Assembly: GCA_019096065.1 (NCBI GenBank)
Contig: JAGUCH010000007.1
Location: 4,362,501 to 4,426,500 of the forward strand
Length of the DNA: 64,000 bases
DNA from: Paracyclopina nana
Taxonomy: Eukaryota > Arthropoda > Copepoda > Cyclopoida > Cyclopettidae
Direction: 5' to 3'
Part shown: piece after piece, positions 7,621-32,492 of the stretch
Layout of the letters: the number at the start of each line of letters is the position of its first letter
Position numbering within the stretch: position 1 is the first letter of the stretch
The notes under the pieces: generated by a model
Seen by the model: only the letters and a program-made list of their open reading frames with translations
Database searches by the model: none
Told to the model about the DNA's origin: nothing
Translations under genes and position numbers: made by a program

Positions 7621-7707
7621 GTTTCACGAAGAGCGCTCGATCCCCACTGCAACTACTAGAGCATTCCTTCTTGGATTCACTTGTTGCCCAGCTACCGAAC
7701 CATCAAC

Positions 7708-8367
7708 ATGATCACGTTGGCAGATAGCGGATTTGATTCCGGATCATCGCCTGAACTGCACTCCACATCGATGGAGGATCCTCCCATGTCGAGGACACAT
7801 CAGTACAGAAAAGTCATGAAGCCCCTGCTCGAACGCAAGCGAAGAGCGAGAATCAACAAATGCCTGGACGACCTCAAGGATCTCATGGTGACAGCTCTGC
7901 AGTCCGAAGGAGAGTCCATCACCAAGCTGGAGAAAGCCGATGTGCTCGAGTTGACTGTGCGACATTTGCAGAAGCTCAAGCGGCAAAACGCCCTGGGACT
8001 CACTCCGCAAGCCACCTATGCCGGACGGTTCAAAGCAGGCTATGCCCATTGTGCGCAAGAAGTGTCCAAGTACTTGTCAGCTCAGCCAAAGGATGCCGTC
8101 AGTGTTGATGTGACAACCCGATTGTTTTCGCACCTTGGCAATTGCATGCAAGCTTTGGACTCGATGCCGCCCTCAGTTTTGTCGATGGCTGTGCCTTGTC
8201 CCACACCGAGTCCTCAGTTCATTCCGTCGAAATATTGTGAAGATCAGCTGGCTCCTCTGGATCTGATCAAGGCGGGCAAGGAGAACCAAGCTCAAGATCT
8301 CAGCATGAGCACCCTCAAAGCCAGACAGCCTCTGTCCAATGTCAATGACAAATGGAGGCCGTGGTAG
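7708..8367 (+). CDS. E(spl): Hairy/Enhancer-of-split bHLH-Orange transcriptional repressor, 219 aa
   Basis: A single exon. I chose the ATG at 7708 because it gives the short N-terminus usual for E(spl) proteins; the frame is open upstream but without ATG. Residues about 32-90 form a HES-type bHLH whose basic region carries the diagnostic proline ([20 protein letters not shown]). An Orange domain follows at about 105-145 ([20 protein letters not shown]), then a Pro/Ser-rich tail. The protein ends in WRPW, the Groucho/TLE-binding tetrapeptide. It should bind N/E-box DNA as a dimer and repress proneural genes downstream of Notch. Regulation: a Su(H) paired site lies upstream and a K-box/miR-2 site lies in the 3' UTR. 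The bHLH is nearly identical to that of the gene at 31911, which suggests tandem duplication within an E(spl) complex. Confidence 0.95.
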
Positions 8368-11552: not shown

Positions 11553-11568
11553 TACCCCACAAAACAAA
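11553..11568 (+). repeat. left terminal inverted repeat
   Basis: TACCCCACAAAACAAA, probably TA target duplication plus 14-bp TIR. It matches the right end exactly in inverted orientation, and similarity stops immediately inside. Confidence 0.7.
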
Positions 11569-12106
11569 TCATCCCTATTTTATATCTATTAAATCCTGCC
11601 TTAAAATAAACTTCTCTCAAATCGAAAAAGTTTTGCATTATCGTATTCTCTATGATGTACCGACTGCACACATACCTTTTTTTTGAATGTACTCCGTTTC
11701 ATTTATGAGATATTCAAATTTAAAGTTTTCTTTTTTTTCGTAATTTCGCGTAGTTCAAATCATAAATTTTTTCTGAATTTTCATAGATTTTAAGTATCAA
11801 TATTAATAGTTATAACATTTATGACAAACTTACATAATTATTTTTTTTGATACCTTAATTTTCATAATCTCTATTTTTAATTTTTTTTTTCCCTTTTTTA
11901 TGCTTTAAGTTGTTCAAAAATGTACCGTTATTTTTTTCTCATTTTTTTTATATTCTAATAGAAGAAATTTAATTAAATATTTGTATATTTTATAGATTTA
12001 AAATACCATTTTTGAAGTAATTTTATTTCCATTTTTTTTTTAATCACAAAACATTTGTCATCACCTTTTTAAATATCGACTTCCCAACTAATTAGATATA
12101 GTTACT

Positions 12107-12962
12107 CATGATTATTTATCTATTCATGCTGCATGCCATAACGAGGAAGTTGCTCAACGGAATTCACATCTAACTGTTGTAAAGACATCATGCCTTTTGC
12201 TAACTATTGAATTGTATCACTTCAAAATAAAACTATATTTTATTGCCACTTTTTCCTATTTGTTTGGATTAAGTGACTACAGATTATTTATCTATTCATG
12301 CTGCATGCCATAACGAGGAAGTTGCTCAACGCAATTCACATCTAACTGCTGTAAAGACATCATGCCTTTTGCTAACTATTGAATTGTATCACTTCAAAAT
12401 AAAACTATATTTTATTGCCACTTTTTCCTATTTGTTTGGATTAAGTGACTACAGATTATTTATCTATTCATGCTGCATGCCATAACGAGGAAGTTGCTCA
12501 ACGCAATTCACATCTAACTGCTGTAAAGACATCATGCCTTTTGCTAACTATTGAATTGTATCACTTCAAAATAAAACTATATTTTATTGCCACTTTTTCC
12601 TATTTGTTTGGATTAAGTGACTACAGATTATTTATCTATTCATGCTGCATGCCATAACGAGGAAGTTGCTCAACGCAATTCACATCTAACTGCTGTAAAG
12701 AAATCATGCCTTTTACTAACTATTGAATTGTATCACTTCAAAATAAAACTATATTTTATTGCCACTTTTTCCTATTTGTTTGGATTAAGTGACTACAGAT
12801 TATTTATCTATTCATGCTGCATGCCATAACGAGGAAGTTGCTCAACGCAATTCACATCTAACTGCTGTAAAGAAATCATGCCTTTTACTAACTATTGAAT
12901 TGTATCACTTCAAAATAAAACTATATTTTATTGCCACTTTTTCCTATTTGTTTGGATTAAAT
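12107..12962. repeat. tandem array, five copies of a 172-bp unit
   Basis: Five head-to-tail copies (unit starts at about 12107, 12279, 12451, 12623 and 12795) are nearly identical; the first is the most diverged and the last two share private changes. Each contains CATGCTGCATGCCATAACG and a short palindrome around AATAAAACTATATTTTATT. Open frames in the array are by-products of the repetition, since 172 is not a multiple of three. It lies 0.55 kb inside the left end of the candidate transposon. Confidence 0.95.
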
Positions 12963-13104
12963 AATTCCCTATTTCTTCATAACTAGAATGCTGTTATTTA
13001 TCTTAGTTTCCTGTTTCATCACTAAACCTGATTTTCTTATTGTTTGTTAATTTTTCATTGCTTAGTGGCAGTTAATACGTGCTACTTGACTGGAGTGGGT
13101 TACC

Positions 13105-13370
13105 ATGGATCCTAACGAGATTAGAGAAATTCTTAGACTACTTGCTGAGAATTTGCAACTAAGATTTTTGCAAAAAAGAGCTGACAACAATTTAAGGTAT
13201 AATTACTCAATATGTAAGTTTATGTACATACTTTTGATTAATGCATATACTTTATCAGATCCGCAAAAGAGAAGGCTGAAAAAGTAGAAGAGGATATAAG
13301 ACTTGTTGAGAATGCTATTGAGCATTTGAAGAGGGAATTGATCAACTTAAGCGATAAAAAGAAGGAATAG
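13105..13370 (+). CDS. small coiled-coil protein of the transposon, 67 aa, two exons
   Basis: Exons 13105-13196 and 13259-13370 join in phase 2 with GT-AG ends across a 62-nt intron. The start is MDPNEIREILRLLAENLQLR and the second exon adds KEKAEKVEEDIRLVENAIEH. Heptad-like Leu/Ile spacing and high charge (Lys/Glu) throughout predict an amphipathic coiled coil for almost the whole chain. I recognise no family. The clean junction and the intron size, matching neighbouring element genes, support a real gene. It may dimerise or bind another element-encoded protein; that is inference only. Confidence 0.6.
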
Positions 13371-13440
13371 TAAAAATGTTTTTGTAATATGAAATTACGA
13401 AATAGATTCAATTGCATAGAGAGTAGTTTATTCGCAAGAT

Positions 13441-13528
13441 ACTGATTGGGTGAAATGATCACGTGATCAAGCTTTTGGAGAAGAAGCATACATAACTATG
13501 CACTGATTGGATGATCGTGGAGCCGAGA
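13441..13528. repeat. internal direct repeat, copy A
   Basis: About 88 bp similar to 20768-20854 in the same orientation, sharing TCACGTGATCAAGCTTTTGG exactly plus GAAGAAGC, two GATTGG (inverted CCAAT) motifs and GGAGCCGA. It lies between two convergent small genes. Confidence 0.75.
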
Positions 13529-13625
13529 TGTGACCTCTGAGCCGATAAATTTTAAAATTTAAACTTTAACAAAAAAAAAGTTATATTTCAAATATTTTTG
13601 AACATATATACGAAAAATATAGAAA

Positions 13626-13937
13626 TCAAACTTCTTCCTCACTATCCGTGATGTAGACAATGGCTGGTTTCTTCTTTTCGTATTTACATCGAACGCTATT
13701 TTGCATTCCGCTCTGACATCTGTAGTTAATCGTCCCAAAGTTTTCAGGTGCCGACATCTTTTTAGAAGAATGAATTTCTTTCGTATCAGTCTCCATTTCA
13801 ATTCTTGAGAATATGAATTTTTCCGTTCTTGTCATTATTGCGTGACCAATTAGTGAATGCTTATTGCCAGCTAATTCATTAAGTTTCTTTATTAGCACTT
13901 CCCTCTTCAAAATCTTTTCTTTATCCACATTTTCCAT
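13626..13937 (-). CDS. hypothetical 103-aa transposon protein with C-terminal SUMO-interaction-like motif
   Basis: An uninterrupted frame with a true ATG (MENVDKEKILKREVLIKKLN) directly downstream of, and on the same strand as, the transposase gene, 107 nt after its stop. The N-terminal third is charged and probably helical, and there are two cysteines in mid-chain. The C-terminus reads AIVYITDSEEEV, a hydrophobic core followed by acidic residues, as in SUMO-interacting motifs. I recognise no family. Its place and strand suggest it belongs to the element and may be a partner or regulator of the transposase. Confidence 0.5.
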   Translation of the reverse strand: MENVDKEKILKREVLIKKLNELAGNKHSLIGHAIMTRTEKFIFSRIEMETDTKEIHSSKKMSAPENFGTINYRCQSGMQNSVRCKYEKKKPAIVYITDSEEEV

Positions 13938-14044
13938 CGTGCCGCTTGTTTTTGTTTACTTCATTAATGACGTGATTGATCGATTTTTACTACAAGCATG
14001 ATTTTTTCTAAAAAATGATGACATTATTCTTTTATTATTCTGTT

Positions 14045-16723
14045 TTAAACAAACAAAGTAGAAAATGATACTGCATATATTAAATTATCAACAATAGCAC
14101 ATTTGCATTTAACATCCTCTTTTAGGACAGGAACTAATTCATCTTTTATCACAACTTTGACAAACTTTCGTACCATTATTGCGTCGTAATTGAGTTCTGG
14201 TGTTTCATCGTCAACAAATTTTTCTGTTTTCACCTTATGGCAGTAGAAATATTCATCTTTGTCTGATATGACTTCGTAAAATATGAGATTATTCGCAAGA
14301 ATAAATGCATCATTGCTGTTATTTTTTCCTTGCTTACTAGTTATACGAATAACTCTTGCACAGTGATGCTTTTGCATGGTCAAAACATTAGCTTTGTTGA
14401 TGAGTTGTTTTCCATACGACTATATGTCAAAAAATGATATATTATACAGAAAAAATATATAAATGCTATATGTACCTGCGTGTTATTTTCCAAAAATCGC
14501 TTCAGATAACCATAGTTGTTTTCAAATTGTTCAGCAGAAATGTCATCGAACTCATGATCTTCGCGAACAAGAAATACGTGGCTGAAAGCATGGAGGTTAT
14601 AGGTACACTTCTTATCTCCAAATTGTTCGCACCACATTTCATAGAAAATGTCTAATACTTTTTCAAGTGGCAAATATGTTTTTTCATGACAGAATTCAAT
14701 CATCTGGTTGTCTAGAAGAACAGCTTTGCACAAAAATCCAAAAAACTTGAATAATCGCCTCAAATGCCTCTGCGAAATTGTCCTATTTGCTGATACAATA
14801 TCACTAAATGCTTCAGCCATATGCCAGAATGCACAGCACGTTATAGTCACAAATTCCTCTGACTTCAAATGAATAAATGACCGCTCAAGATCTCTCGGTT
14901 TCCTAGAAAATTCTGATGGCAGTTGTATCTTTGTCCATGTTGCATCAAATCTAGATTGATATACAAAGTCATTAAAGTAACTCTAATATATAGGAGATTT
15001 ATACTTTTTAAATACTGTGACGACTCTTTGCGGAAAAGTTTTGACTTTGCCAGATATACCAAGCATTAGTTTAAGTAGGCCTTTTGCTAGGCCTAAAAAC
15101 AAATTATGCATTGGCTCCACAGGAAAATCTCGGATAATATCAAAATGTGGCAATCTAAGAAATGGAGAACTGCCAACAACTCCAAATTTGGCATAGTCTG
15201 TCAATTGCTTATCCGAGGTTTTGATCTTCTCAACAATGCGCATCCAACCAATATGTGTTCGTAGGTGATATTTCTTCTTTGTTGGTGGGTATGCAATGCA
15301 TCCAGGTCCCAAGCTTGTTCCAACAGCATAGCACCTCTCACATGAGCAGTATCCACCATGTCCTTTAAAACACTTCCCTGATGAACGGCATGGAGCATCG
15401 GCAATTGCACATTGGCAAATAAATCCATCCATCAGTCCATCATAAATAATCTTCTCCATCAATGAATTAAAATCAACCTTTGATTTCTTCCTTTAAATTA
15501 TTAATCAATATTTTCATAAATATTGATAATTTATTGAGAAAAAGAATACCTGTACTTATGAAGACCCACATTATACACAAACCGGCAACCAACGAATCTT
15601 ACACACAAAACAGTGGCTTTGTCTATTCCCGATTCAGTGACTGGAACTCCATCGAATGATAAATCATATTTCACATTCATAACGCTGTTGTTGTCGATCG
15701 ATATGTTGTGGTTTTTCGCATGAAATTTGTAAAGCTCTAGAATTGATAACTTAGTCCATTCAGATAAGATTTCATACTTCTTAGCTGGGTATTTCTTGCG
15801 TGGAAATGAGTCTTTGTCAGTTAAGTTGATAATCAATCCATTTTCTTTCTCCAAAAGTTGATAATCCATTTTTGGTTTTGGTATAGTCATATAGAATTTC
15901 CTTTTAATAGTTGCAAATGACTTTAAATTAGGAAATTTGTCATGCATTGAGGCTCTCAAAAAATTCCACATAGCCCGTGCTGAATTTTCAGACATCATGA
16001 GTTCAGTGTAAGCCATGATGAAGCTGTCACTTATATGGTCACATGCTGCGTCATCTGGCATTGATGACGCTTCCTCAAATATGGCAATAAACTTTTCAAT
16101 GGAATAGTTCTCTTTAAGTCTATGTTTTGTTACATCCAGAAACATATATTTCCTATCAGCTGTGTAGTATCCATCTTTGACACCAAATCCGGAATCATGA
16201 TCACAAATAAAAACCTATGAATAGACAATGCTTCATATAATAATGGGTGATTATATAAATTAAATAGCTAACCTCTTTGTCTGATTCGACATTTTCATGG
16301 TTAATAACCGTACCGACGTCACCTATCAATTGCTCAATTGATGAATTAATATCTCTAATTGATTCTCCTTCAGTGCTGCTGCTGCTGCTGCAATCGTCAT
16401 TCTAGAAAAACTTTTGATTATAAATGCCGATAACTACTTAAAATATAGATTACTTCTTTCTGATATTTCGTTTCATGATCACTGGAGCTATTAGATGTTG
16501 AACGTTTCCGCTTATTTACATCTGAAAGTCTGTCATTTTGGAAATCTGTTGCTTCATTTCCATTTGACAACTCAATGTCCATGCCATCGTCGTAAAATGC
16601 CTTTTGTTTAGACAATTCTGTATTCAAGAATTCATTTTCCGTTTCTGAATTGCTATCAAGTTCACGTAATTGTCGCTGTATGCGTCTTTGACGAAGTAAT
16701 GACATGCGATCCTTTGAGGACAT
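14045..16723 (-). CDS. CACTA/EnSpm-like DDE transposase, 796 aa, six exons
   Basis: Minus-strand exons: 16723-16454, 16401-16273, 16214-15550, 15490-15046, 14982-14476 and 14419-14045; all phases fit. The fourth donor (GTCAAA) is the least certain. An acidic, Ser-rich N-terminus precedes the catalytic core. Segments match the CACTA/EnSpm plan: LSFDGVPV (Asp about 321), CAIADAPC (Asp about 386) followed by a Cys cluster (FKGHGGYCSCERC), FPVEPMHNLFLG, then NLHAFSH and AEQFENNYGYLKRF (Glu about 657). These would be the DDE triad and zinc motif. No stop codon interrupts the joined frame, so the gene could still be functional. It is divergent from accessory copy 1, whose start lies 500 bp away. 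Confidence 0.8.
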
Positions 16724-17222
16724 TTTAAACGTTTCAGTTCAAATTCGTGTATTTGTATTTTGATTTTATGAAAACTGACATATCATATATGAGATCATCA
16801 TTAAGACATTACATACGAAATATAGAAAATCAAGTAGTTACCACTGTAAACATATTATTATTCAATAATGCAAATAATAAGTTTGAATATACTGAGATAC
16901 AAATAAAATGATTCGTCAGTCTATTTAAAAATTGAATTTCTATATATTAAGTAAATGTCCGAAATAACTATAACCAATTTTAAAAACAAATAATATTTAC
17001 AGTGAGCAGCTCTATTCTATTAGATGCGCGAGTAGACGTGCCGGTACTGCATCCAGCCAAGCTAATCAAGCAGACGCCATTTTGTTTTCGGCAGTTAGTG
17101 CCGGCGCATGTTCTGCCAGTGCGGCCGGTACAGCAAAGCTATATCTGCCGGCCCAAACTAGTTTAGTTGAGAAGTTATACTGAGCGGGAAAATTGAGCGC
17201 CAACATCCATTTCCGGTCAATA

Positions 17223-19966
17223 ATGGTGAAGACGAAAGAACAGTTGCTTTACGAAAAACGAAAAAAGTTTCGTGCCGACTTTAATATGCCGCCACCGACG
17301 CCATTGCCATCACCCGGAGCAAGTCCATCGACCAGCGAGGAAATCTTTCCTCTTTCAATTGGTGTGGCAATCCCAGATGACGAAGATTGGACTGGATTAC
17401 CAAAGGAGGACGCCGTCGCCCGTCAGGGAAAATCCGAGTACAATCGGGTTTTGATCGTCATGCCTGAGGAGTTGGAGCCAGTCTCAATTTATCCGATCAC
17501 CACGATCTGCGGCTATACCGGTAAATCGATGTCGGACATTTTTGGATTCGAGCCCAAGGGACGGTTGAGCGATAAACTGCGCTTAAAGGAGGGGAAAATG
17601 AACATTAGCAATCGAATCAAGAGGAAGGCCTTCATTTTCTGCCGAGTCGAGAATCGTAAGTATATAAAATCAAACTTTTATATACTTCATTGACAAATTT
17701 TTGATTTACAGGAGTTGGACGCGCGAGGATAACCACATTGCTCAAGTTCCTCAATGACCACTTCCACGCAAAGAACGAGTCCGCACGTATTGACGTCTAC
17801 AACCAAATGGTGACGAACTATACGGAGAAAGTAATGGCCGACTATACTTTCCCAAGCCGTGATCCAAACGGGGAGTTTTACTTCCACCGGTTGACTGATA
17901 TCAAGGATAGGAGAGACTCTCTTGCCGAAAGCGTAACTGACGCTATAACTATGGTAACATTGACAATTTATATACTTATTTTTGAGTTAAAACACACATT
18001 AATTTCAGGATGATGCCGATGAGCCACAATCGTCGACGCCGTTATCGAGTCCAAAAAGGAGGAGCACAAGGTCGTCGAGGACAAAGGGCAGCCCACTGAA
18101 AGTGCAAATGCTGTTCCAAACGAGGGAGAAAGCTAAGGCCAGCGAGGAGGTCACCGAGGAGGCATCCCATGACACCACGGCAGTCTTGGACACTGCAGTT
18201 GAAGAGTCGACTCAACCAGATGATGATCCCAATCCCGCACTTGTACGAAATCCATCGATTACCTTTCATCCGCCCGAGTTTGGAACTGCGACGTCCTTGA
18301 CGAAATCTCAAATCGATGAGATTGCAAATTCGGTTGCCGAGAAGGTGATGCCGCGCCTGATGGAATGCTTTTCGCAAAGGGATCAGCGGCTCATTGATGT
18401 CCTCGTAATGATCAAGGATGACGTGCAGTCCATCAAGGCTGACATTACGAACGGAAAAGAGGTCACTGCCACATTCCAAGATACGCTCGGCGAGGTAACT
18501 CAAAAATGCGAGAACTTTGGCAAAATATCGGAACTGTGCGAGGGAATCAACAAGATGACACTCTCCACAAAGGATGCGTTGACGGTAAGCTTACAATAAA
18601 AGAGATATTGTAGATAAATAATACTGATATTATATTTATAATTAGAAAAAGGCTGTTGATCAACAACAAGCGCTGGTGACGTGCAAGGCAATACTCGAGA
18701 AGGTCTCGATGATAGAGGATGCCTTGAAGGACATCAAATCGTCCAAGGTAGAGCGCGTGTCGTTGGCAAGGAGGATTGTGTGCAAGTACGTTCCCGTCGA
18801 TCATGTCACTGCTGGACATGACATGTTCTTTGGCTGCAATGTCATCAGGGAGATCTTGCTCGGGGCCATTGTCACCATTGTTGACAATATTCGATTCGAG
18901 GTATTGTCATCAAAAATGCCAAGCAAGATTTCCAGTTTCCTGTTCACCAGTAATGCCTTGGCGCACATGATTTTCGGCAAGACGACAACGTAAGTAAAAA
19001 AACAAGATTTTATATACATTTTATATAGAAACTTTTACTTTACAGTGGAAATGCCTTGAAGGTTTGGTTCAAGAGGAAACTCCCAACTGGATGTATAAAG
19101 TTCATCTCCGAGGTCGTCTCTGATAACCATCAGAGACGAAACATGACTGAGCAGCAAATTCTCCGAATCTCGGTCAGTGAGATCAACAAGAAGGTTGCTG
19201 ACGGCTTCAGCGCTGCTCGCCAGCGCTTGATCAAAGAGGTATGCCGTGTGGCAAATGACTGGGAAATGGCCATGTCTGTACTGTACGACGAGGCGATGGA
19301 GTTTTGGACTCACAATCAGGTAGTTTATTCAGAAAATATACTTAGCCTTAGTACATAATTATAAAATATGTTATTATTTAGCATGTTAACCTCGATCCGA
19401 ACATGACGTATGAGGAGTTCAAAGATCAGTACGGGCATTCAGATGATCTTCAGGCCAAATTTGAAGCGGATCCTCTTGGAGTGGACATTGCCAAGGAGAA
19501 TGTTCTAAGGAAATTCAAGGGAGCGCATGGTTCTCCTATTGGATCGATCGAGGAAGCATGCCGTATAATTGCCGCTGTCTGTCACGCGCTAGGGCGTGAC
19601 CCAAAAGAGGTCGAATTCGATGAGCTCGATGGGATTAAAAATGTAAGTAGTAATCTATAAAACAACAAAACATGAAATAATATTCCGTGTATATAGAGAG
19701 TTGAAACTAATGATGATCTTTTTTTTTTTCAGCCATACGATATCTACTCCAGATACATTTCTGGCCTCGACATGAATGCAGTCCTCGAAAACATTCAAAG
19801 AGGCTGTGGCGTGAGGGACGACGATGATCATGACACTGATGACGATACCGATGACACCGTGACGCCACCAACCAAACCGTCAAAGCAGCCGGGCAAAAGG
19901 AAGTCGTCCGACATCAGTTCCCCTGCCTCAAGCGTCAACGCAAGCCATTGTCAGCGGCTGCAGTGA
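17223..19966 (+). CDS. transposon accessory protein family, copy 1, about 787 aa, seven exons
   Basis: Exons 17223-17655, 17712-17953, 18009-18584, 18646-18989, 19046-19319, 19382-19642 and 19733-19966; phases 1,0,0,2,0,0 all fit GT-AG introns of about 50-90 nt. The N-terminal domain (GYTGKSMSDIFGFEPKGRLS) and the next exon (RITTLLKFLNDHFHAKN) are shared with copies 2 and 3. A variable acidic/basic linker and a coiled-coil-like stretch follow. The best conserved region (exons 4-5; MFFGCNVIREILL, FKRKLPTGCIKFISEVV) resembles a BEN-type helical DNA-binding module, but only loosely. The frame stops at 19966, while a Lys-rich tail continues in another frame to 20142, suggesting a one-base shift. 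I do not recognise the family by name. Confidence 0.7.
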
Positions 19967-20142
19967 AGAAAGCGCTGCTCGAGGCCAAAAAGACTGAGTC
20001 CGCCAAGAAGAAGACGGCAGCAAAGGCTACACCAGCCAAAAAGGATGTGGTTGCGTCCACATCAGGGATGCGAGCTGCGACACGATCGCAATTAACGAAG
20101 CCGCCAAAAGATGACAGCTCATCAGAGGCTGAAGAAAATTAA

Positions 20143-20767
20143 GGATTTCTTTTTTTTTATGCTATTTCGGAAAAAGAATTGAGTACCCATTACTCCGCCC
20201 AAAATTTTAGTGCTCAAATAAGTTAAAATATGCATGTGACCTAAGAATTAATAGAATATAAGCATGATATGTATGATTCGGTCTAATATTTTTATTGACT
20301 CATTCATTTTATTCAAATTGTTTGTCGCTTATTGAAATGATCTTGAATTTTTTTAAAAACATCTCTTTTACGTTGCGTCTCTATATATTGTCAATATTCT
20401 CTCATTTTTGAGAATTGATTAATTATATATTGACTTCAATATTTTACATTAGAGTTTTTAAAAAAAGAATTGGACAATAATTTAGTAGTTTTTAAATGTT
20501 AAGCTTTAAATTACTTTATATTAAATAATACTTATGCAATTAGATGTTTCAAAATCGGCATTTTGCGCACTTGATTGCTCCGCATGAACATTAGCAACTT
20601 TCTTTTCTTTTCAAACGCGCAACATGACGCTTTTCAGAGATGCACTTTAAGTAATTTCATTGTAAGTGCTGATTGTAAGTAATTATGCATAAAATTTGGC
20701 ATTATCGTTCATTAGCTTTGATTACGTTTAGATTTGTTAGCTCCAGCAGAAATGACGCATTCTGCAT
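20143..20767. other. AT-rich spacer between copies 1 and 2
   Basis: About 620 bp of low-complexity AT-rich DNA with short palindromic stretches. I see no gene in it. Confidence 0.4.
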
Positions 20768-20854
20768 TGTGATTGGCTGTACTTGTCACGTGATCAAGCT
20801 TTTGGGGAAGAAGCCTATATTCACGTGCGCTGATTGGCTGTTGTTGGAGCCGAC
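20768..20854. repeat. internal direct repeat, copy B
   Basis: Matches copy A at 13441-13528 in the same orientation. It lies after copy 1 and about 500 bp before copy 2, and carries inverted CCAAT motifs and a CACGTG. It could be promoter-like, or a trace of segmental duplication within the element. Confidence 0.7.
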
Positions 20855-21356
20855 GCTGGCAATAGTGATCATTCTCTTTTTACGGTAATAATGGTGCCAA
20901 TGATGACGTCTCATTTTAATAATTGTAATGTCCTTAATTTAATTCGATAAATAATTACTTCATATAGTAACATGCATTACTATCATCTAATAAGAACGAT
21001 CCGACGCATGGCAAAGTAACCGTTCGATTATTTCATTAATTAGTGTTGAAATGAAGAAGTAACAGCGTAATCTTACAAATGCACTGATTCAAAGTAGATA
21101 TTTATTTAATTTTTATAGATACAGATCTAACTATTTTATAACAATAAACATTTTATTATTCTTAATCTTTTTCGAGGTTGAGTGACAAATAAAATTCAAA
21201 ATAGTTCCGACATTCAGCATTGCTGAGTACCGCCAAAAACATAACAGCAGCCGTCGACTGCCTTCTCTGCCAGCAGACTGGCGCAAAATATCAGCATATT
21301 TCTCAGCAGAATTGTTTGGCCTTCGAAAAACACGTGTCGAGCTAATACGAGAAGCA

Positions 21357-22498
21357 ATGGCGAATCGTGGATTACGAAAAGTCGTGAACTTGCCACAAAA
21401 ATTGGGTATAGTTGTCCCATTGCTTGAAGAGACGATTCATCTGCCGAAGTCTAAGAGTGTTGTGCGGCCCAAAAACGGAAAGTTCGATCGATTGTTCCTA
21501 TTCAATCCTTTCAATGACAAAGATGTCATGTTCTGTCAAGGATTTGACTATTTTTGCAACTACACCGATCGTACGCTCATGGATATTTTTGACTTTGATC
21601 CACGGAAACAGTTGTCAGTGGACAACCGATTGAAAGGTCATTACGTTCTCAATAACGGACGTGAGGAGCAGTTCTTTGCATTTGCACGAGTTCAAGAAAG
21701 TAAGTCACTGTGATATCTACATATAATAATTATATTTGACATAGTATTGCTTGTTTTAGGAGTTTCTCAGACTCGTGTTAATCGGCTCATTGGTTTTTTG
21801 AACGCACATTTCAAGTCATGCGAGTCTGAAGATGATCGGCGTGCAATGTACAAGGAATTGGTCGCGAACTATTCGGAAAAGTTGATGGGACTGTACACCT
21901 ATCCGCCAAGAGACCCGCAGACGAATGAATTCAACTTTCATTGTCGCAGAATGGCTCTACGAACTCGTCTGGTGATTGATCTTTCATCAGATAGTGAGGT
22001 AATATTATAATTAAAATTGCGAGTTTATACATTTTTAAGCTTTTTATTGTTAAAATAGAATGAAGTTGCGAAAGTTGAAGAAATCGTAGATCGTGAGGTA
22101 CCTGCTGATGGCAATGGCAATCAAGACGCCCTTGTGCAGGCAATTGTCGATAAAATAAGTCCGTTAATCAAAAGCTACTGCGATCAGCGACAAAGTATGA
22201 TTGATGAACTGATTGGATCAATCCATGACGATGTGAAGGTCATCAAAGGTTCCTCGAGATGATCAAGATTGATAATTTGGAAGCCATGCAATCGATGAAT
22301 GAGTGCATCAACAATGTCAGCCAATCTGTTGAATCTTTGTATGCAGTCAAATGGGCTACCAACAACGTTGATACGAATAGTCAATCAATTCTTGAAACCT
22401 GCAATGCAATGGCTGATGCAATCGTCACTATTGGTGAGCAGGTCATCAATATTCGTTCGTCATTGAGGGAAATTGGGAATTCAAACCAAAAGTAAGAT
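21357..22498 (+). pseudogene. accessory protein family, copy 2, frame-broken and 3'-truncated
   Basis: Exons 21357-21699 and 21760-21998 join in phase 1, and 22059 onward continues in phase 0, at the same intron positions as copies 1 and 3. Similarity to the family is clear (RTLMDIFDFDPRKQLS; RVNRLIGFLNAHFKS). The third exon runs into TGA at 22260-22262, and homologous sequence continues in another frame from 22259 to 22495. There the copy ends, without the region equivalent to exons 4-7. Exon 2 ends in RLVIDLSSDSE, a SUMO-interaction-like motif. It is probably a decayed copy, although a short N-terminal protein could still be made. Confidence 0.7.
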
Positions 22499-22744
22499 TC
22501 AGTATTAGTGAATCTATATTATCACTATGTAATGAATCCGAGAATAAACTCAATGCCATGTTCAAAATCTTCATAGTTATTGACAGATTGTAGAGTTTTT
22601 ATAGACACACGCACATTTCGTGATAGTTTTTAAAAACATCCATTGATTTATATCTATTGCTCATTCAACTGAGACATACAGCATCATACTCATCACTTTA
22701 AATGCCAGCTGATATTTCCAACTCATCACGGAACACGTGGGAAA

Positions 22745-25651
22745 ATGAAACGTGCGAAGAAAAGTTCCATCTTTGATGAAGAATTGCCCCCAATTGAGCC
22801 CCATCAGGAGAATGAAGTCATTGGCGAAGAACTGACAATTGTTGCCGGTGTGGATGTTCCTGAATCGGAGAATACTAATCAACTCGACTTGAACAAATCG
22901 GTTCATCTGCCTAAATCAGGAGGAGTCTATGATCGGTTATGCCTCTTCGATCCGAACAGGAAAAAGGATAAGCTATTCATTCGTTATGTCAATCATCGTT
23001 GCGATGTTTCTGGTAAAACGTTTACTGACATTTTTGGCTTCAAACCCAACAAGACTCTCAAAAATTCGGCACGTTTGAAACCATGTCTTGTTCATGATGG
23101 CATTGATTTTGCATCAACTTATGTCTACTTCAGGATAGAAGATCGTAATTAAAATTCAAAGTCTATATTATCAGAACAATTAAGCATATATGTATTTTTA
23201 GGAGTAACTAATGGTCGCTTGTCTAGTGTGCTCGAATACCAAAACAATCTCTTTCGTAAGTGTAAGACTCTTCTGTCTATTCAGAGAATGTATTCCCAAA
23301 TGGTATCGACCTATCCTGAAAAACTGATGATGGATTTCACGTTTCCACCCATCGATTTGAAGACTGGGAAGCACATCTACCATAATTGGCATGGTCAAAA
23401 TTTGCGTAGTAAGCCAGTTACGATCCCAATGACATCTGATAGCGATGTGACGTCCAAGACCAGCAAGCTGCCGAAGGTGATTAAAATACAAATGATCTAT
23501 TTTGTACGTATTATAGATTAAATTATTTTTAAAAATAGACATTTCCATCGGTTGAGGACAGTGACGATGAAGAAGACGATAGCCGCCATGCCAAATCAAA
23601 CCTTAAACGGAAGGATTCAAAAAAGGAATCTTATGGCAGACGATCTCAAATGGATGCATCTGAACAATCTGATGATGAATCCGGAATTAGCGACATCCTG
23701 CCACCAAATGAGGTCAATGACTCAAATCAAGCTGCTAAACTCATCATGAATGATGATTGTTTGTCTCAACAAGATGAAGTCAATGATAATGGTCCATTGC
23801 GGAAATTGGTCAGCTCACTAGCTCGCGAAATGCTACCACAGATCCAGCTGACAATCTTCCAAAAAATCGACGACGCTAAGGATGAAATTATTGAGCATAT
23901 TACCTCTTTGGCGAATGGAAATGCTGAAATCAAACAGCTATGCGAGAAGATCAATGAAAGTGCTGTCTCATCTACAAAGTGGATCAAAGCGTCTGTCTCA
24001 ATTAAGCCGGTATAATCACAAATGTAATCTCTGTAATCTCTGTATAAATATTACTTTATAGAGAAAGGTTGATGAGCAACAGGAACTGCTCAAGACTAAC
24101 AAAGCTATTCTAGAGCATACATCGGTCATGAAAGAGCAAATGTCTATGCTCCGAACAATTCCTGTGGAGAAAGAGTCGCTGGCGAGACAGATTGTGATGA
24201 GGCATCTGCCAGTCGATCACCTCAATATTGGTCACGATTACTTTTTTGGTTGTGATGTGATTATTCGTGTATTGCAAACTGCAGTTAGGCCACGCATTGA
24301 TAAGATTGATTATCCACAATTGAAAAGCAAAATGGGTGGTCTGATCAATCGAATCTTGTTCACAAGTAGTGCTAGAGCGCATTTAATCCTTGGAGAGAAG
24401 ATGACGTATGTATATAATCTCTAAATAATTCATCTATTTTACTATCTCTATCATTTTTACAGCGGCACGCACAACAAAAGTTGGTTTAAGAGAGGATTTC
24501 CTAACGGCTGCTTGAAGCTCGCTGAAGAGGTTGTGACGTCCTATTTGTCACGACGAAAAGTGGATGAAGCCTTTTTGAAGAACATATCTCTTCAAGACAT
24601 TAAGAACCGAATGGGTGACGCTCTCAGTGGTGATAGGCAAAGATTCATCGATGACGTGTGCAAGAAGGCTACATCAGGAAAAGATGCCATGAAAGCGTTG
24701 TATCTGGAAGCAATGTGGTTCTGGAAGAATAATCAAGTAAGCAAGTTAGATGTTATTTAATCAATCAATCTTACCTTTGACATTTACAGCATACAAACAT
24801 GGATCCATCAATGACTTATCAGCAGTTCTTCGATACAACTAAAGACATGACTGCTTTGAGGAACAAACTTGCGTCGGACAAGGATGACAGTGAGGGCAGT
24901 GATGTCACCTTGGACGATTATCCAAAGTACAAGCATATCCTAAGCAATTCTAAGAAGGGAGCAGGCGAACAAATTCATGGATTGAATGATGCGACAAAAA
25001 TCATCGCAGCTGTTTGTTTGGCATTGGATAAGAACCCTGAAAGCGTTGTGTTCTACTCTATGGAAGGAGTCCTAAAGGTATAATCTCACTATAAACACTC
25101 AATATATTAGACATTAAGCATTTATACTCTTTTGCAGCCCAAGCAAAAATACTTGGAAGCCTTGGCTAATTGTGAGGACGTGGCTGAGTCAATTCGTGAG
25201 TGGCGTAACAAAGACGCTTTACGTAGCGTCATGACACCATCTAAGGACATGTCTGTCGCTGAAGGATCGGAAGATGATTTTGAAACTGAAGAGGAGACAA
25301 AGAGAAAAGCAATGAAGAGAAGACTGGAGGAAATACCCTTTGAAGATGATTTAATGCCTCCAAGACCTTCTAGACCATCGGCTAGGTCTGTCAAAATGGC
25401 TTTATTAAGTCAACAAGTGCCAAAGTCAACAAAGCAATTGCCACAGAAGTCACACTCGCAACAACCAATGATGATCGAGGAAGAGGATTGTGAGATGCAA
25501 GTAACATCTGGTAAGAAGTTGATGAGGCAACAGAAAATATCATTTCCGAAAAAGGTAAAAAATATATTACATTAAGAAGCATTATTGATTACAACTACAT
25601 TTTTTATAGAATACGATGGGACGGACTGAATCATCGGATGAGGAGAAATGA
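22745..25651 (+). CDS. transposon accessory protein family, copy 3, 836 aa, eight exons, intact
   Basis: Exons 22745-23144, 23202-23476, 23539-24009, 24062-24405, 24463-24736, 24790-25077, 25138-25554 and 25610-25651; phases 1,0,0,2,0,0,0 fit throughout. Exons 4 and 5 have exactly the same lengths as in copy 1 (344 and 274 nt) and the intron phases match, so the copies are true paralogues although their proteins have diverged strongly. The order is: N-terminal domain (KTFTDIFGFKPNKTL), an acidic Ser/Asp linker, helical segment, conserved core (DYFFGCDVIIRVLQTAV; WFKRGFPNGCLKLAEEVV; ALSGDRQRFIDDVCKKA), then a basic Pro/Ser tail ending GRTESSDEEK. It is likely a DNA-binding or chromatin-interacting element protein. 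AATAAA follows at 25748. Confidence 0.75.
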
Positions 25652-25747
25652 GGAGACGAATTGAATTGCTACATTTTTCATATTATGCGTTATTTCACAT
25701 GAAGCATTTAGCATTAATATTCATATAATGCACTATTGAGTACGAAA

Positions 25748-25753
25748 AATAAA
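25748..25753 (+). terminator. polyadenylation signal of accessory copy 3
   Basis: AATAAA about 97 nt after the copy 3 stop codon. Confidence 0.5.
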
Positions 25754-26635
25754 TGCTATGTTCATCCATATTAATTGGTTTTTTTGTTAGTCTATTATAT
25801 GGCAATTAATTCCCGATTTCCTTTTTCTATACTAATAGTCTATTTATGTTCAGGAAAAATAGGGTAATTTAATCTAGTTGAAACACAAAATTAAAACACA
25901 GCTAAATGCATTTAGTTGCGACAAATAGATGTATATGGAATTACTCATTTTTCCACATCTCAAATATCACTACGAAATAAAAAATCTGTAAAAATATATA
26001 TCCAATTTAAAATAAGGTGTTACTCATGGAAAGTGGGTGTTTAATAGTATGAAAAAAATGAATACTACATATAACTGATTGGTTGGCAGAAAGTTAGAAT
26101 ATAAAAAGGGATTGCAATATAAAAATAGATGGAATGAAATAAAATACGTAATGATAAAATAATAATTTAAAAGTAATATAAATGTACATTTAATTACCGT
26201 ATATGCCAAACATGTAGGAATAAGTAGGCAATAAGTCACAAAGTTTATGCATATTTTTTACCAAAAAATTAGAATAAATAGGGAAAAAATAGAAAGTAAA
26301 TTTTAAAAAATGAAAAAATAAAAAAAAAAAATTAAATCCCCATTTAATCCATATTAAAGAAATTAAATATATATTAAAACGGGATTATGATAATTTTCAT
26401 GAATGCATAACTCTTACATTTACAAATATTTCATTAATATTTCAATCATGCGTAATCAATAGAAGGTGAGGGAGATAATAAAAACAAAAAATCAATCCTA
26501 GCGTTTATTTTTAGTCATCCCTATTTCCGAAATCATATGTTTAGCGATATCGTTACGCTTTTTGTGCCACTATTTGACATTAATCGGGATTACAATACAC
26601 TACGAAATCCCTATATTTTAACAACTTTTTTTCAT
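25754..26635. other. right-end non-coding arm of the transposon
   Basis: About 0.9 kb of very AT-rich DNA without genes, holding several CCCTATTT/AAATAGGG motifs (about 25856, 26276, 26518 and a near-match at 26608). These are also seen near the left end (11573) and just after the tandem array (12967). They are candidate subterminal transposase-binding repeats. Confidence 0.5.
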
Positions 26636-26651
26636 TTTGTTTTGTGGGGTA
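26636..26651 (-). repeat. right terminal inverted repeat
   Basis: TTTGTTTTGTGGGGTA, the exact reverse complement of 11553-11568. Confidence 0.7.
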
Positions 26652-29195: not shown

Positions 29196-31705
29196 AATGG
29201 TTTGCTCAGCTCAGCGTAACGTTTTGCTGCTCACCTGCTCGCGATTCTCACGGGAATTTCATACTTTTGATCGTAATCACTTTGACTGATGATGATGTCA
29301 TCAACATGTCCCACATTTGTTGCTCTTCCAAGAAAATGATATTCACCTGCAATCCATGGCCACATTTCCTATGTAGCATACAAAATTGCACCCTCACAAA
29401 AATTATGCAAATCAATTAACGTGCCACATTTAAGTCATGCTGAGCACAAATCCCCTTTTCTAGTTTACTTTTATTACAACAGCTACTATTTTTAAGGGGA
29501 GCCGAGCCATAAATCATCGAAATAATGCCAAGCCACAGTAGTTCAATTTATGGGAAAAAGTCGTGAGTGGTTTTAGGTCAAGCCCAATGCAATGGGAGCA
29601 AATGGTGGAATTCTTGCGTAATTGGTGTCATCCGGGCAAGCCAGGTTTTTTTACGAGACGACACTTTTTTAATAAGGGCACCTGTTTCTCAAGTTGCCTT
29701 TTGGTTTTTGGAATGCGCGGAATTCACCACCAATAAGTTGGCGTGGGTTCAAGCAAAAGGCCAGCTAATTTTTAAGACTGTTGTCATGATCATAAAAACA
29801 CCTCAGGTGACCCAAGATTTCCTGGCCAAAGAGCTATACTTTTCTTTGGGCTATAAAAAAGTGTAGAAAAGGGTCACCACAGCAGTCAGTAGTAAAAAAA
29901 GCCTCCAAGAATTTGTGAAACTGCTGGCTTTTGTTGGACGCAAGCACAAAATGCCAACTAATTCTAGACTTGTTTGGCCTCAGATTTGATGGGACACTCT
30001 TGTCCTGTTTTGATGACGCGGCAAAAAATTGTAAACAAAGCTCAAGAGCTATTAACCATTCCGGCGGTAATTGGGCACCCACGTGAAAAAAGAGGTTTTG
30101 CTGCTGCTGTTGATGATCAAAGCCATTAATTTGCAGCCACCACCACTTTTGGGGTCTGTTGTTGTCTCCATGAAGTCACATGGCCAAGGGCAACTTCCAA
30201 ATCATTGGCTTTGCTCCCCTGCACACTGAAACACTCTGAGGTGAAGCAGCTTTCAATTTTCATAAGCTAGCACTTTCAAGAAGGCTTGTGGGGGAAGAAA
30301 TACCTGAAAATATTATATTCATGCTCCCCCACTGTGCACTGCTGCTGCAGTTAGGGACCTTCAGAATTTCGTGGTGTTGACAACAAAGTGTGTGCAGGAG
30401 TATCCCTTTGCGTGCTGTATACAGGTGGAAAAACGGTTTTTCACACGAGCCCCACTCGCGTTTTTGGCGCCTGCCTCCAACCAGGGGGGTCTCGTAAGTG
30501 AGTTCTTGACGCAAGTTTTGCATGCTAAAATCACCAAATCTGTTCGTCTTAGCTGCGGTGGCGCTAGTAGTTCTTACTACATAGCGCGTGAGCTCAAGTG
30601 ACGTCAGTGATGGAAGCGAGCGGGCTAATATATCGCTTTTTAAACAGAGCTCCCAGATAAGTTCTGTTTTTATAAAAAAAAGTTTCGTCTTGAAGCCTAC
30701 CACAGCTCAGTCAGACTGTGCGCTATAGTAAAGCAGCGATAAGAACTCACCTTATAAGTATAGATCATCTTGCCTCCAACTACTATTTTTCAAAGACAAT
30801 TGCAGCAGCTGCCACTGATTCCCATATTCCATGGGAAGACAAGATCTTCTTGGTCACCACTCATGGATGGATGGATGGATGATCATGAGGAGGAAGAGGA
30901 AACTTGCTTCCGAAATAGCCAACCGTTTTTCCTCCTCAGAGCTGGTAGCGGCGCAATTTCTACTTAGTTGGATGTGAAATGCAAGGAAGAGCTGGAATTG
31001 CATTTTTCGGTTCAATTCGCACTTGTCTTGATGGGTGAGACGTAAATACCGTTGTAGATGCTGCGGGAGAAAGAATGGGATCCCCATTAGCAAATTGTTC
31101 TCACGAAGATTGCGTAGTAGTTTGGCCAAAGGAGCCGCGCGCGAGAGAGAAATCAAATTATGCTTCATCTTGATCGCTAATTCCCAGCTGAGTTCATCAT
31201 CATTAGCATTTTTGATACCCTGCTAAGTTCACATTGAGCTTCTGGAATCCATCAAAGTATAGCTGAAGCTCCGCGGTTGTTTTCGTTCTTTTTTGCGGCC
31301 TTATTTTTCTATGGCATTCCTCCGATGCAAATTATGCAGGCAATTAACTCAAAAATGCGAGGACCATGTGGCACAGATTCAAGTGTGATTATTTCAAAGT
31401 TCACTATCTTGACAAAGAGATGATGCACGCATGGATCCGTAATTACAGCGTGAGTCATCGACTTACTTTTTTTCCACCGTGCAAAAATCCAAACAATGAA
31501 TCCGTACATGTTGACTATTTTCCTGAAAGCTGCAAAAAGCATGAATTTAAATCATCAATAATCTTTTGCATACATTAAATCTTTGGTTTGTTTTGTTTTT
31601 GAGATTTGTGTAGCGTAGTATAGCATTGCAGCAGCATAGGCAGGGGGTAAATGTTTGCACCTTGCTCGTGCCCCACAGTCACACTTTGAACCTGAGGCCA
31701 ATTTC
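29196..31705. other. intergenic region upstream of second HES gene, with an orphan promoter-like segment
   Basis: No family-supported gene. At 30600-30715 there is a promoter-like stretch: TGACGTCA near 30600, TATAAAAA at 30671-30678 and TCAGT at 30707-30711. The 65-codon frame after it has no ATG near its start. The stretch may be an upstream promoter or a non-coding first exon of the HES gene at 31911, or the promoter of a non-coding RNA. Bases 30863-30882 are a short GATG microsatellite. Confidence 0.35.
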
Positions 31706-31737
31706 GGTGGGATCTTGGCTGCAACATCGTTCCCACG
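31706..31737. promoter_or_regulatory. Su(H)/CSL paired site upstream of second HES gene
   Basis: GGTGGGAT at 31706-31713 (degenerate) faces the consensus TTCCCACG at 31730-31737 with exactly 16 bp between, the same geometry as at 7589-7620. The base context after the consensus half (GGTT) is also shared. It lies 173 bp before the chosen ATG. Confidence 0.65.
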
Positions 31738-31910
31738 GTTCCTTCAACTCTCGGCTCGTTCGGAGCTCCGCGATGGCATGTGCCCGCAACCGGCTACTAA
31801 CCTGTGCTGCGCCCGTTGCAAGCGCACGCGCGCACTCCTCTGCTCCCACTCAGCAGCCACTATTGCTCATTTCGTATCTCGACGTTCTCAGATCAACACG
31901 TTCAGCAATC

Positions 31911-32492
31911 ATGGCACCCGTTTTAGCCATCCCAGAATATGCCGACCACGACGAGGCACCCATGTCGAGGACCCATCAGTACCGCAAGGTCATGAAGCCC
32001 CTGCTCGAGCGCAAGCGCAGGGCGAGGATCAACAAGTGCTTGGACGACCTCAAGGACCTCATGGTCTACGCTCTCCAGTCCGAAGGAGAGTCCATCACCA
32101 AGCTGGAGAAGGCCGACGTCCTCGAGTTGACCGTGAGGCATTTGCAGAAGCTCAAGAGGCAGCAGCAGCTCCAGGCGCATCCCAACCTCGATGTGGACCG
32201 ATACAGGGCAGGATACTCTGCGTGCGTCAATGAAGTGTCCCGATTCATCACAGCCGTACCCGGCATCCACGTCAACTTTGGCAACTCGCTCATGGGCCAC
32301 ATCACCTCCAGACTGCAGCACGACACCAGCGAACAGCAGCCACAACCTCAAGTGAGACCACGCCTGTCAGCATCACCACTATCCGACGGCGGCTACAACT
32401 CTGGAAGAGATTCCAACTCTCCATTGTCCGTAGGATCGGCATCACCAAAGCCCTTGCCAATGACAACTGGCAAAGTGTGGAGACCTTTCTAG
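31911..32492 (+). CDS. E(spl): Hairy/Enhancer-of-split bHLH-Orange repressor with WRPF C-terminus, 193 aa
   Basis: A single exon. I chose the ATG at 31911 because it gives an N-terminus of the same length class as the paralogue at 7708; an in-frame ATG at 31773 would add 46 low-complexity residues. The bHLH at about 21-79 is almost identical to the first HES protein, with the proline in the basic region. The Orange domain spans about 89-130 (DRYRAGYSACVNEVSRFITA), and the tail is Gln/Ser/Pro-rich. It ends in WRPF where family members have WRPW, which may weaken or alter Groucho binding. Regulation: Su(H) paired site upstream; two K-box sites and AATAAA in the 3' UTR. Confidence 0.95.
   Translation: MAPVLAIPEYADHDEAPMSRTHQYRKVMKPLLERKRRARINKCLDDLKDLMVYALQSEGESITKLEKADVLELTVRHLQKLKRQQQLQAHPNLDVDRYRAGYSACVNEVSRFITAVPGIHVNFGNSLMGHITSRLQHDTSEQQPQPQVRPRLSASPLSDGGYNSGRDSNSPLSVGSASPKPLPMTTGKVWRPF

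What the first reader, a model, noticed from the sequence alone, without database searches (positions are those of the whole stretch)
11553..26651. A 15-kb multi-gene DNA transposon with CCCC-type ends and a CACTA-like transposase
A 16-bp exact inverted match (TA + CCCCACAAAACAAA) brackets a transposase with a plausible DDE triad, two small proteins, three copies of an unnamed multi-exon protein family and a tandem array. Animal CACTA-like elements normally start CACT and are smaller; this combination of cargo, TA-like target site and size looks like an undescribed lineage.
Basis: partly seen in the sequence, partly recalled or inferred. Interest (0 to 1): 0.88.

Follow-up and report, generated by a model that had tools for sequence, protein, structure and literature searches.

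The report
15-kb multi-gene CACTA-like transposon in arthropod
This is a real and apparently recently mobile 15-kb jumping gene of a known animal kind (CACTA-related, ends starting CCC), notable because besides its transposase it carries a set of conserved partner genes of an unnamed family.

Summary
Window 11555-26649 (15,095 bp) is a DNA transposon with a perfect 14-bp inverted repeat (CCCCACAAAACAAA) inside a 2-bp target-site duplication (TA). A second copy, 99.91% identical, sits at an unrelated site. A third full-length, diverged copy sits in a repeat with 39 listed empty paralogues, five identical with a single GA. All 13 two-ended copies scored have a perfect 2-bp duplication, TA in 6. 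The transposase (799 aa, 6 exons) has D-D-E with C(2)C and H(3)H, the mark of the CACTA/Mirage/Chapaev/Transib clade. CCC ends with 2-bp duplications are already described for animal 'TRC' CACTA-related elements, so the ends show no new lineage; Pfam Transposase_21 was not detected, so strict membership is open. The 'cargo' is not cargo: the three paralogous genes belong to a divergently transcribed partner family found beside transposases in 43 of 46 and 54 of 54 matches, kept as 3 or 5 genes in 13 of 14 elements of this lineage. Most other transposase loci (108 of 146) show no such partner at this sensitivity. New variant of a known kind.

The parts
11553..11554 (.). left copy of the 2-bp target-site duplication (TA)
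   Evidence: 13 of 13 two-ended copies scored have a perfect 2-bp duplication
11555..11568 (+). left terminal inverted repeat CCCCACAAAACAAA
   Evidence: same end in 9 two-ended copies, one-mismatch version CCCCACAAACCAAA in 4 more
12110..12960 (.). subterminal tandem array, 172-bp unit x 4.9, units 99% alike
   Evidence: repeated units also present in the diverged full copy and in six of six ~2-kb copies with this left end
13105..13370 (+). small gene P, 2 exons (13105-13196, 13259-13367 + stop), 67 aa, coiled-coil-like
   Evidence: 85% aa identity to the C1 copy, dN/dS 0.41; only weak sub-cut-off Pfam matches (best E 0.0072)
13626..13937 (-). small gene S, single ORF, 103 aa
   Evidence: 61% aa identity to the C1 copy, dN/dS 0.33
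14045..16723 (-). transposase, 6 exons, 799 aa, GT-AG introns of 52-59 nt; D321, D386, C405-x2-C408, H637-x3-H641, E660
   Evidence: dN/dS 0.108 against the C1 copy
17223..20142 (+). accessory gene A (full-length type); last exon carries a 1-bp deletion relative to the other full copies
   Evidence: dN/dS 0.077 over exons 1-6
21357..22495 (+). accessory gene B (short paralogue: N-terminal domain plus coiled coil); exon 3 carries a 1-bp deletion relative to the other full copies
   Evidence: dN/dS 0.186 up to the break
22745..25651 (+). accessory gene C (full-length type), 8 exons, 836 aa, frame intact in the window
   Evidence: dN/dS 0.112
26636..26649 (-). right terminal inverted repeat
26650..26651 (.). 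right copy of the 2-bp target-site duplication (TA)

Best explanation
Window 11555-26649 is an autonomous-type cut-and-paste DNA transposon of the CACTA/EnSpm-Mirage-Chapaev-Transib clade, of the animal 'TRC' style (CCC ends, 2-bp target-site duplication). The DDE transposase is expected to cut at the CCCC ends and insert with a 2-bp stagger (boundaries and duplication shown; chemistry inferred from the motif). Upstream and divergently transcribed lies an accessory gene family that belongs to the element group itself and is tandemly duplicated in this lineage (three genes here: two full-length, one short). I infer that these proteins are the functional partner of the transposase, binding subterminal DNA and assembling or regulating the transposition complex and/or countering silencing, by analogy with TnpA beside TnpD in maize Spm. 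Short 1.7-2.2-kb relatives with the same ends, too small to hold the transposase gene, are probably moved in trans. The host is most likely an arthropod (TTAGG repeats at two contig ends); species not identified.
For: Second copy at C2:4523159-4538262, 99.91% over 15,104 bp with unrelated flanks, 14 differing alignment columns. Third full copy, 15,244 bp, on C1, with 39 listed matches spanning its empty-site join, five at 100% over 122 bp. Perfect 2-bp duplications in 13 of 13 scored. D, D, C2C, H3-4H and E shared by the window transposase and four relatives at 30-33% identity. A relative with a 33% identical transposase also ends CCCCAC/GTGGGG with a TA duplication, 8,319 bp, with one transposase and one divergent accessory gene; two near-identical copies elsewhere (their left ends not checked). 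Accessory exon-4 matches: 43 of 46 within 20 kb of a transposase match, all 43 divergent, against 2.9 expected (maximum 10 in 1000 placements; length of contig C4 assumed). Accessory exon-2 matches: 54 of 54 beside a transposase; 13 of 14 lineage elements keep 3 (11) or 5 (2). dN/dS 0.077, 0.186 and 0.112 for A, B, C and 0.108 for the transposase. Published animal TRC elements: CCC ends, 2-bp duplications (PMC1636069, sections 6 and 8 read; PMC4298943, passages).
Against: No Pfam transposase model, Transposase_21 included, matched the window protein or four relatives with the limit at E 1 (HMMER's filters drop most matches above 0.1); the genome family search was blank, though it rang in none of 14 control genomes either. 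PDB sequence searches gave nothing better than E 0.44. Accessory proteins have only sub-cut-off Pfam matches (DUF6877 E 0.0034, ARM repeats E 0.0076) and the two AlphaFold models are unusable (mean pLDDT 47 and 46), so their role is inferred from association and selection only. 108 of 146 transposase loci show no accessory match at this sensitivity, so the partner may be absent from, or too diverged in, much of the wider group. The window copy has 1-bp deletions in accessory genes A and B, so it may not be fully autonomous. No transcript or transposition data.
Confidence: 0.86

Rival explanations
1. The three-copy family and small proteins are captured host genes (cargo) carried by an ordinary CACTA-like element.
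For: No match above cut-off to any described protein family; exon-intron genes inside a DNA transposon are typical of captured genes (general knowledge); 3 of 46 accessory exon-4 matches lie far from any listed transposase, and 108 of 146 transposase loci have no accessory match.
Against: 43 of 46 and 54 of 54 accessory matches sit beside a transposase, in one fixed orientation wherever scored; the pairing extends to an element whose transposase is only 33% identical; 14 of 14 lineage elements have at least one and 13 have 3-5.
Confidence: 0.06
2. A lineage distinct from TRC/EnSpm-type CACTA (for example Mirage-like, or a new branch of the CMCT clade) that merely shares CCC ends.
For: Transposase_21 is not detected in five transposases of the group, whereas SmTRC1 is reported to contain it (PMC1636069). 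CMCT lineages are said to end CA..TG in most cases, with 2-5-bp duplications (PMC12730594, passages).
Against: CCC plus 2-bp duplication is exactly what is reported for three animal TRCs and Hydra Spongebob; the C2C/H3-4H DDE signature is shared. Absence of a Pfam hit is weak evidence at this divergence.
Confidence: 0.25
3. Assembly artefact, nested insertion or segmental duplication rather than one mobile unit.
For: Two copies almost identical over 15 kb, and the window copy has two frame-breaking 1-bp differences that could be sequencing errors.
Against: The alignment of the two copies stops exactly at the inverted repeats plus duplication and the flanks differ; a third copy with the same gene order is inserted precisely in a repeat with many empty copies.
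Confidence: 0.02

Closest known systems
Animal TRC elements of the CACTA superfamily (SmTRC1 of Schistosoma mansoni; Tribolium 5.2 kb; Aedes 9.2 kb; Spongebob of Hydra 5.8 kb)
   Same: Terminal repeats begin CCC; 2-bp target-site duplication (in 7 of 14 SmTRC1 copies); spliced genes; a tandem-repeat region is drawn for SmTRC1; SmTRC1 transcripts also hold a second, TnpA-like product (PrA/PrA2) apart from the transposase (PMC1636069 and PMC4298943).
   Different: 15.1 kb; three accessory genes of one unnamed family on the opposite strand, plus two small genes; Transposase_21 not detected; 14-bp CCCCACAAAACAAA ends. SmTRC-PrA could not be compared with the accessory proteins: its sequence is not held.
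Plant CACTA elements (maize Spm/En; Rim elements)
   Same: Two-component plan: catalytic protein plus a second protein; multi-kb (Spm 8.3 kb, Rim coding elements 14.1 kb on average, PMC1636069 passages).
   Different: CACTA ends; 3-bp duplications (recalled for plants; reported for fungal EnSpm in PMC12730594); in Spm the proteins come from one alternatively spliced unit, here from divergent genes; no sequence match.
Mirage, Chapaev, Transib, Plavaka, ESTA, Lanisha (other CMCT lineages)
   Same: DDE with C(2)C and H(3-4)H (PMC12730594, passages; met here).

Membership tests
CMCT clade (CACTA/EnSpm-Mirage-Chapaev-Transib) | DDE transposase with C(2)C and H(3-4)H between second D and last E | tested here: met
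   D321, D386, C405-x2-C408, H637-x3-H641, E660; shared by 5 of 5 aligned transposases of this genome, one with H-x4-H. The residues are identified by motif, not by structure.
Animal TRC (CACTA-related) elements | terminal inverted repeats beginning CCC | tested here: met
   13 of 13 copies scored end CCCCAC...GTGGGG; also a distant relative. One further copy, C1:10.06 Mb, has a damaged left end and was left out of the 13.
Animal TRC (CACTA-related) elements | 2-bp target-site duplication | tested here: met
   13 of 13 scored; empty sites with a single dinucleotide for one copy.
Animal TRC (CACTA-related) elements | Transposase_21 domain (PF02992) | tested here: not met
   no match with the limit at E 1 for the window transposase (exons and spliced) or four relatives; genome family search blank, but it also rang in none of 14 control genomes. 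So filed as TRC-like, not as a proven TRC member.
Animal TRC (CACTA-related) elements | transposase phylogeny inside TRC/EnSpm | not testable with these tools
   Repbase/Dfam and the SmTRC1 protein are not held.
Plant CACTA (En/Spm) | CACTA termini and 3-bp target-site duplication | tested here: not met
   ends CCCCAC, duplication 2 bp; that 3 bp is usual in plants is recalled.
Mirage | Mirage-specific termini and transposase similarity | not testable with these tools
   no Mirage sequence held; in the listings and passages I saw no description of its ends.
Captured-gene cargo element | extra genes derive from host genes and vary between copies | tested here: not met
   an accessory gene is present in 14 of 14 lineage elements and beside 24 further transposase loci; number per element does vary (1, 3 or 5).

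The most novel reading that the evidence does not exclude
Animal CACTA-related elements of this group are two-component systems: transposase plus an undescribed, divergently transcribed multi-domain partner protein. In one lineage the partner gene has become a retained array of three to five specialised paralogues (full-length and short forms), amounting to a multi-subunit transposition or anti-silencing complex encoded by a single 15-kb transposon.
Probability: 0.4. Interest if true: 0.62.

Novelty: new variant of a known kind. Interest (0 to 1): 0.42.

Why it matters
Whether animal CACTA elements need a TnpA-like partner has, as far as my searches of open papers show, been raised only for SmTRC1, from transcripts. 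Here a partner family is tied to the transposase by position, orientation and selection at 38 loci of one genome, and two nearly identical 15-kb copies suggest recent movement. That makes it possible to test directly whether the partner is needed, and why one lineage keeps several.

Tried and rejected
Rejected: captured cargo; strict TA target; artefact. A transposase gene model with a different exon 4/5 junction was replaced by one supported by the C1 copy and the relatives; the spliced protein sent to Pfam still had the old junction and lacks three residues, and so had the alignment (motifs unaffected).

Led nowhere: Pfam and PDB searches of transposase and accessory proteins; family search with PF02992 (also blank in its controls); viral contig scan with a relative's transposase; AlphaFold of two accessory exons, too poor to search; literature searches for a second gene in animal CACTA elements, for Lanisha and for Mirage ends. 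Short subterminal repeats: I saw no clear TnpA-type motif array beyond the 172-bp units (not tested statistically). In the empty-site search only 40 of 590 candidates were scored, so the lack of empty sites for 11 of the 13 copies means nothing.

Full report
The window lies on contig C7 of an unnamed 92-Mb, 10-contig genome. Of three contig ends read, two (C1 right, C6 left) carry TTAGG repeats and one (C1 left) a GGCCT-type repeat. Neighbouring genes include trypsin-like proteases, two Hairy/E(spl)-type bHLH genes, a GH81 glucanase and a nuclear receptor. The host is therefore most likely an arthropod (inference); I could not name it.

Observation. The 14-bp sequence CCCCACAAAACAAA occurs at 11555 and inverted at 26636-26649 and nowhere else in the window with up to one mismatch (0.06 expected). 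BLAST of the two terminal 300 bp against the host genome gave 10 left-end and 23 right-end matches, the window itself included. I fetched all ten left-end places and 15 of the 23 right-end places; the other 8 right-end matches stop about 95 bp short of the terminus and were not fetched.

Copies. (a) C2:4523159-4538262 is 99.91% identical over 15,104 bp; the alignment stops exactly at the inverted repeats plus duplication and the flanks are unrelated; 14 alignment columns differ, 9 substitutions and 5 single-base gap columns. (b) C1:17.726-17.741 Mb is a full-length 15,244-bp copy at 73-87% DNA identity in the aligned blocks. (c) Six 2.0-2.2-kb copies keep 0.94-1.13 kb of the left end (with units of the tandem array) and about 0.5 kb of the right end, at about 85% and 73-75% identity to the window. 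(d) Five 1.7-2.0-kb copies share the right end and an internal segment with (c) but have a different left arm ending CCCCACAAACCAAA. The short copies were not checked for open frames; they are too small for the transposase gene. I scored 13 two-ended copies: 13 of 13 end CCCCAC/GTGGGG and 13 of 13 have a perfect 2-bp duplication: TA 6, TT 2, and GA, CT, CA, AG, TG once each. Left out of that count: C1:10.06 Mb (left end damaged), C1:13.06 Mb (right end only) and C1:9.95 Mb (left end only).

Empty sites. I joined the flanks of those 13 copies with one copy of the duplication and searched the genome. The join of copy (b) has 39 listed matches across the junction, five at 100% over 122 bp. This shows that a full 15.2-kb element inserted there and duplicated exactly 2 bp. 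For one short copy (C6) a 100% match crosses the join by 26 bp. The other 11 joins had no listed match, but only 40 of 590 candidates were scored.

Genes. Models come from open frames, GT-AG introns of 52-62 nt (one of 90) and comparison with copy (b). On the minus strand: transposase, 6 exons, 799 aa; small gene S, 103 aa. On the plus strand: small gene P, 67 aa; accessory A, B and C. A and C have the same plan in their first six exons (exon 4 is 344 nt and exon 5 is 274 nt in both). B is short, ending after the coiled-coil region. Compared with copy (b), dN/dS is 0.108 (transposase), 0.077 (A, exons 1-6), 0.186 (B up to the break), 0.112 (C), 0.33 (S), 0.41 (P). The window copy has one 1-bp deletion in the last exon of A and one in exon 3 of B, where the other two full copies are in frame; it may therefore depend on intact copies, or these may be sequencing errors.

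Transposase. Aligned with four single-exon relatives of this genome (30-33% identical to it), the residues expected for a CMCT transposase are shared by all five: D321, D386, C405/C408, H637/H641 (spacing 3, in one relative 4) and E660. [quoted passage not shown] No Pfam transposase model matched any of the five, and the PDB searches gave nothing better than E 0.44.

Partner family. The core transposase exon has 161 matches in the host genome, 150 of them listed, which I merged into 146 loci; 14 at 73% identity or more form the window lineage. An accessory exon (exon 4 of C) has 46 matches. Of these 43 lie within 20 kb of a listed transposase match and all 43 are divergently transcribed; random placement gives 2.9 on average and at most 10 in 1000 trials, the length of contig C4 being assumed. 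The other three of 46 have no listed transposase near them. Exon 2 of B has 54 matches, all near a transposase: 44 in the 14 lineage elements and 10 at 2.5-3.0 kb from wider-family transposases. Counted by exon-2 matches, not by full gene models, 11 of the 14 lineage elements have three accessory genes, 2 have five and 1 has one; several of the 14 are near-identical pairs, so they are not 14 independent cases. Against a universal partner: only 38 of 146 transposase loci have an accessory match by either probe, 108 have none at this sensitivity. A distant relative (transposase 33% identical) was delimited: 8,319 bp, ends CCCCACCAGAATTTCT, TA duplication, one transposase and one divergent accessory gene, with two near-identical copies elsewhere whose left ends were not checked. 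So the accessory gene is an old part of at least a branch of this element group, and its duplication is characteristic of the window lineage.

What is known. PMC1636069 (2006; sections 6 and 8 read, passages elsewhere) describes animal CACTA-related TRC elements: ends beginning CCC, 2-bp duplications (7 of 14 SmTRC1 copies), a 9.2-kb example in Aedes, and in SmTRC1 a second TnpA-like product from alternatively spliced transcripts. PMC4298943 (passages) used CCC plus 2-bp duplication to assign Spongebob of Hydra to TRC. PMC6004678 (passages) reports CAC ends with 2-bp duplications for another animal CACTA. So ends and duplication are known. I found no description of this accessory family or of an accessory array in animal CACTA elements in the listings of searches; Repbase and Dfam, where such elements may be filed, could not be searched.

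How it probably works. Shown: precise mobile unit, 2-bp duplication, near-identical copies, conserved coding genes, short relatives with the same ends. Inferred: cut-and-paste by the DDE transposase; accessory proteins as partners at the ends (perhaps the 172-bp array, units of which are kept in six of six short copies of type c) or as anti-silencing factors; movement of short copies in trans. The accessory function rests on association, orientation and purifying selection only.

Verdict. A real transposon of a known animal kind (TRC-like CACTA), in an enlarged, multi-gene version. Strict TRC membership is left open because Transposase_21 was tested and not found.

Noticed in passing
G000 genome-wide: At least 161 matches to the transposase core exon, many in open frames of 600-1000 aa: this host carries a large and diverse population of CACTA-like elements.
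   Followed up: partly
window 46483-46923: A ~440-bp repeat, one of 40 listed near-full-length matches at 90-99% identity to a copy in L048 (ends near ATATCCCGTTCAT); by-catch (match C7:4408983-4409423), where only 40 of 471 candidates were scored.
   Followed up: no
window 13443-13526 and 20770-20853: An 84-bp motif (79% identical, same strand, with a CACGTG E-box and inverted CCAAT boxes) occurs twice in the element and again in the diverged C1 copy; possibly a promoter module.
   Followed up: no
window 7660-8364 and 31614-32489: Two Hairy/E(spl)-type bHLH-Orange genes flank the insertion, so the element may sit inside an E(spl)-type gene neighbourhood.
   Followed up: no
window 40237-42262: A glycoside hydrolase family 81 gene in three open frames, unusual for an animal and possibly horizontally acquired (the inference is from general knowledge).
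   Followed up: no
G000:C3:11185929 and C6:999228 elements: Two lineage elements carry five accessory exon-2 matches instead of three.
   Followed up: partly
L025-L030 and C6:4.97M, C1:15.28M, C1:10.06M, C3:8.25M, C1:5.53M: The two groups of short copies have different left arms but share an internal segment of about 490 bp plus 95 bp at 91-97% identity that BLAST does not find in the full copies; it points to another, unfetched autonomous source.
   Followed up: partly
G000:C1:1-1500: The left end of contig C1 is a GGCCT-type tandem repeat, not the TTAGG seen at two other contig ends.
   Followed up: no
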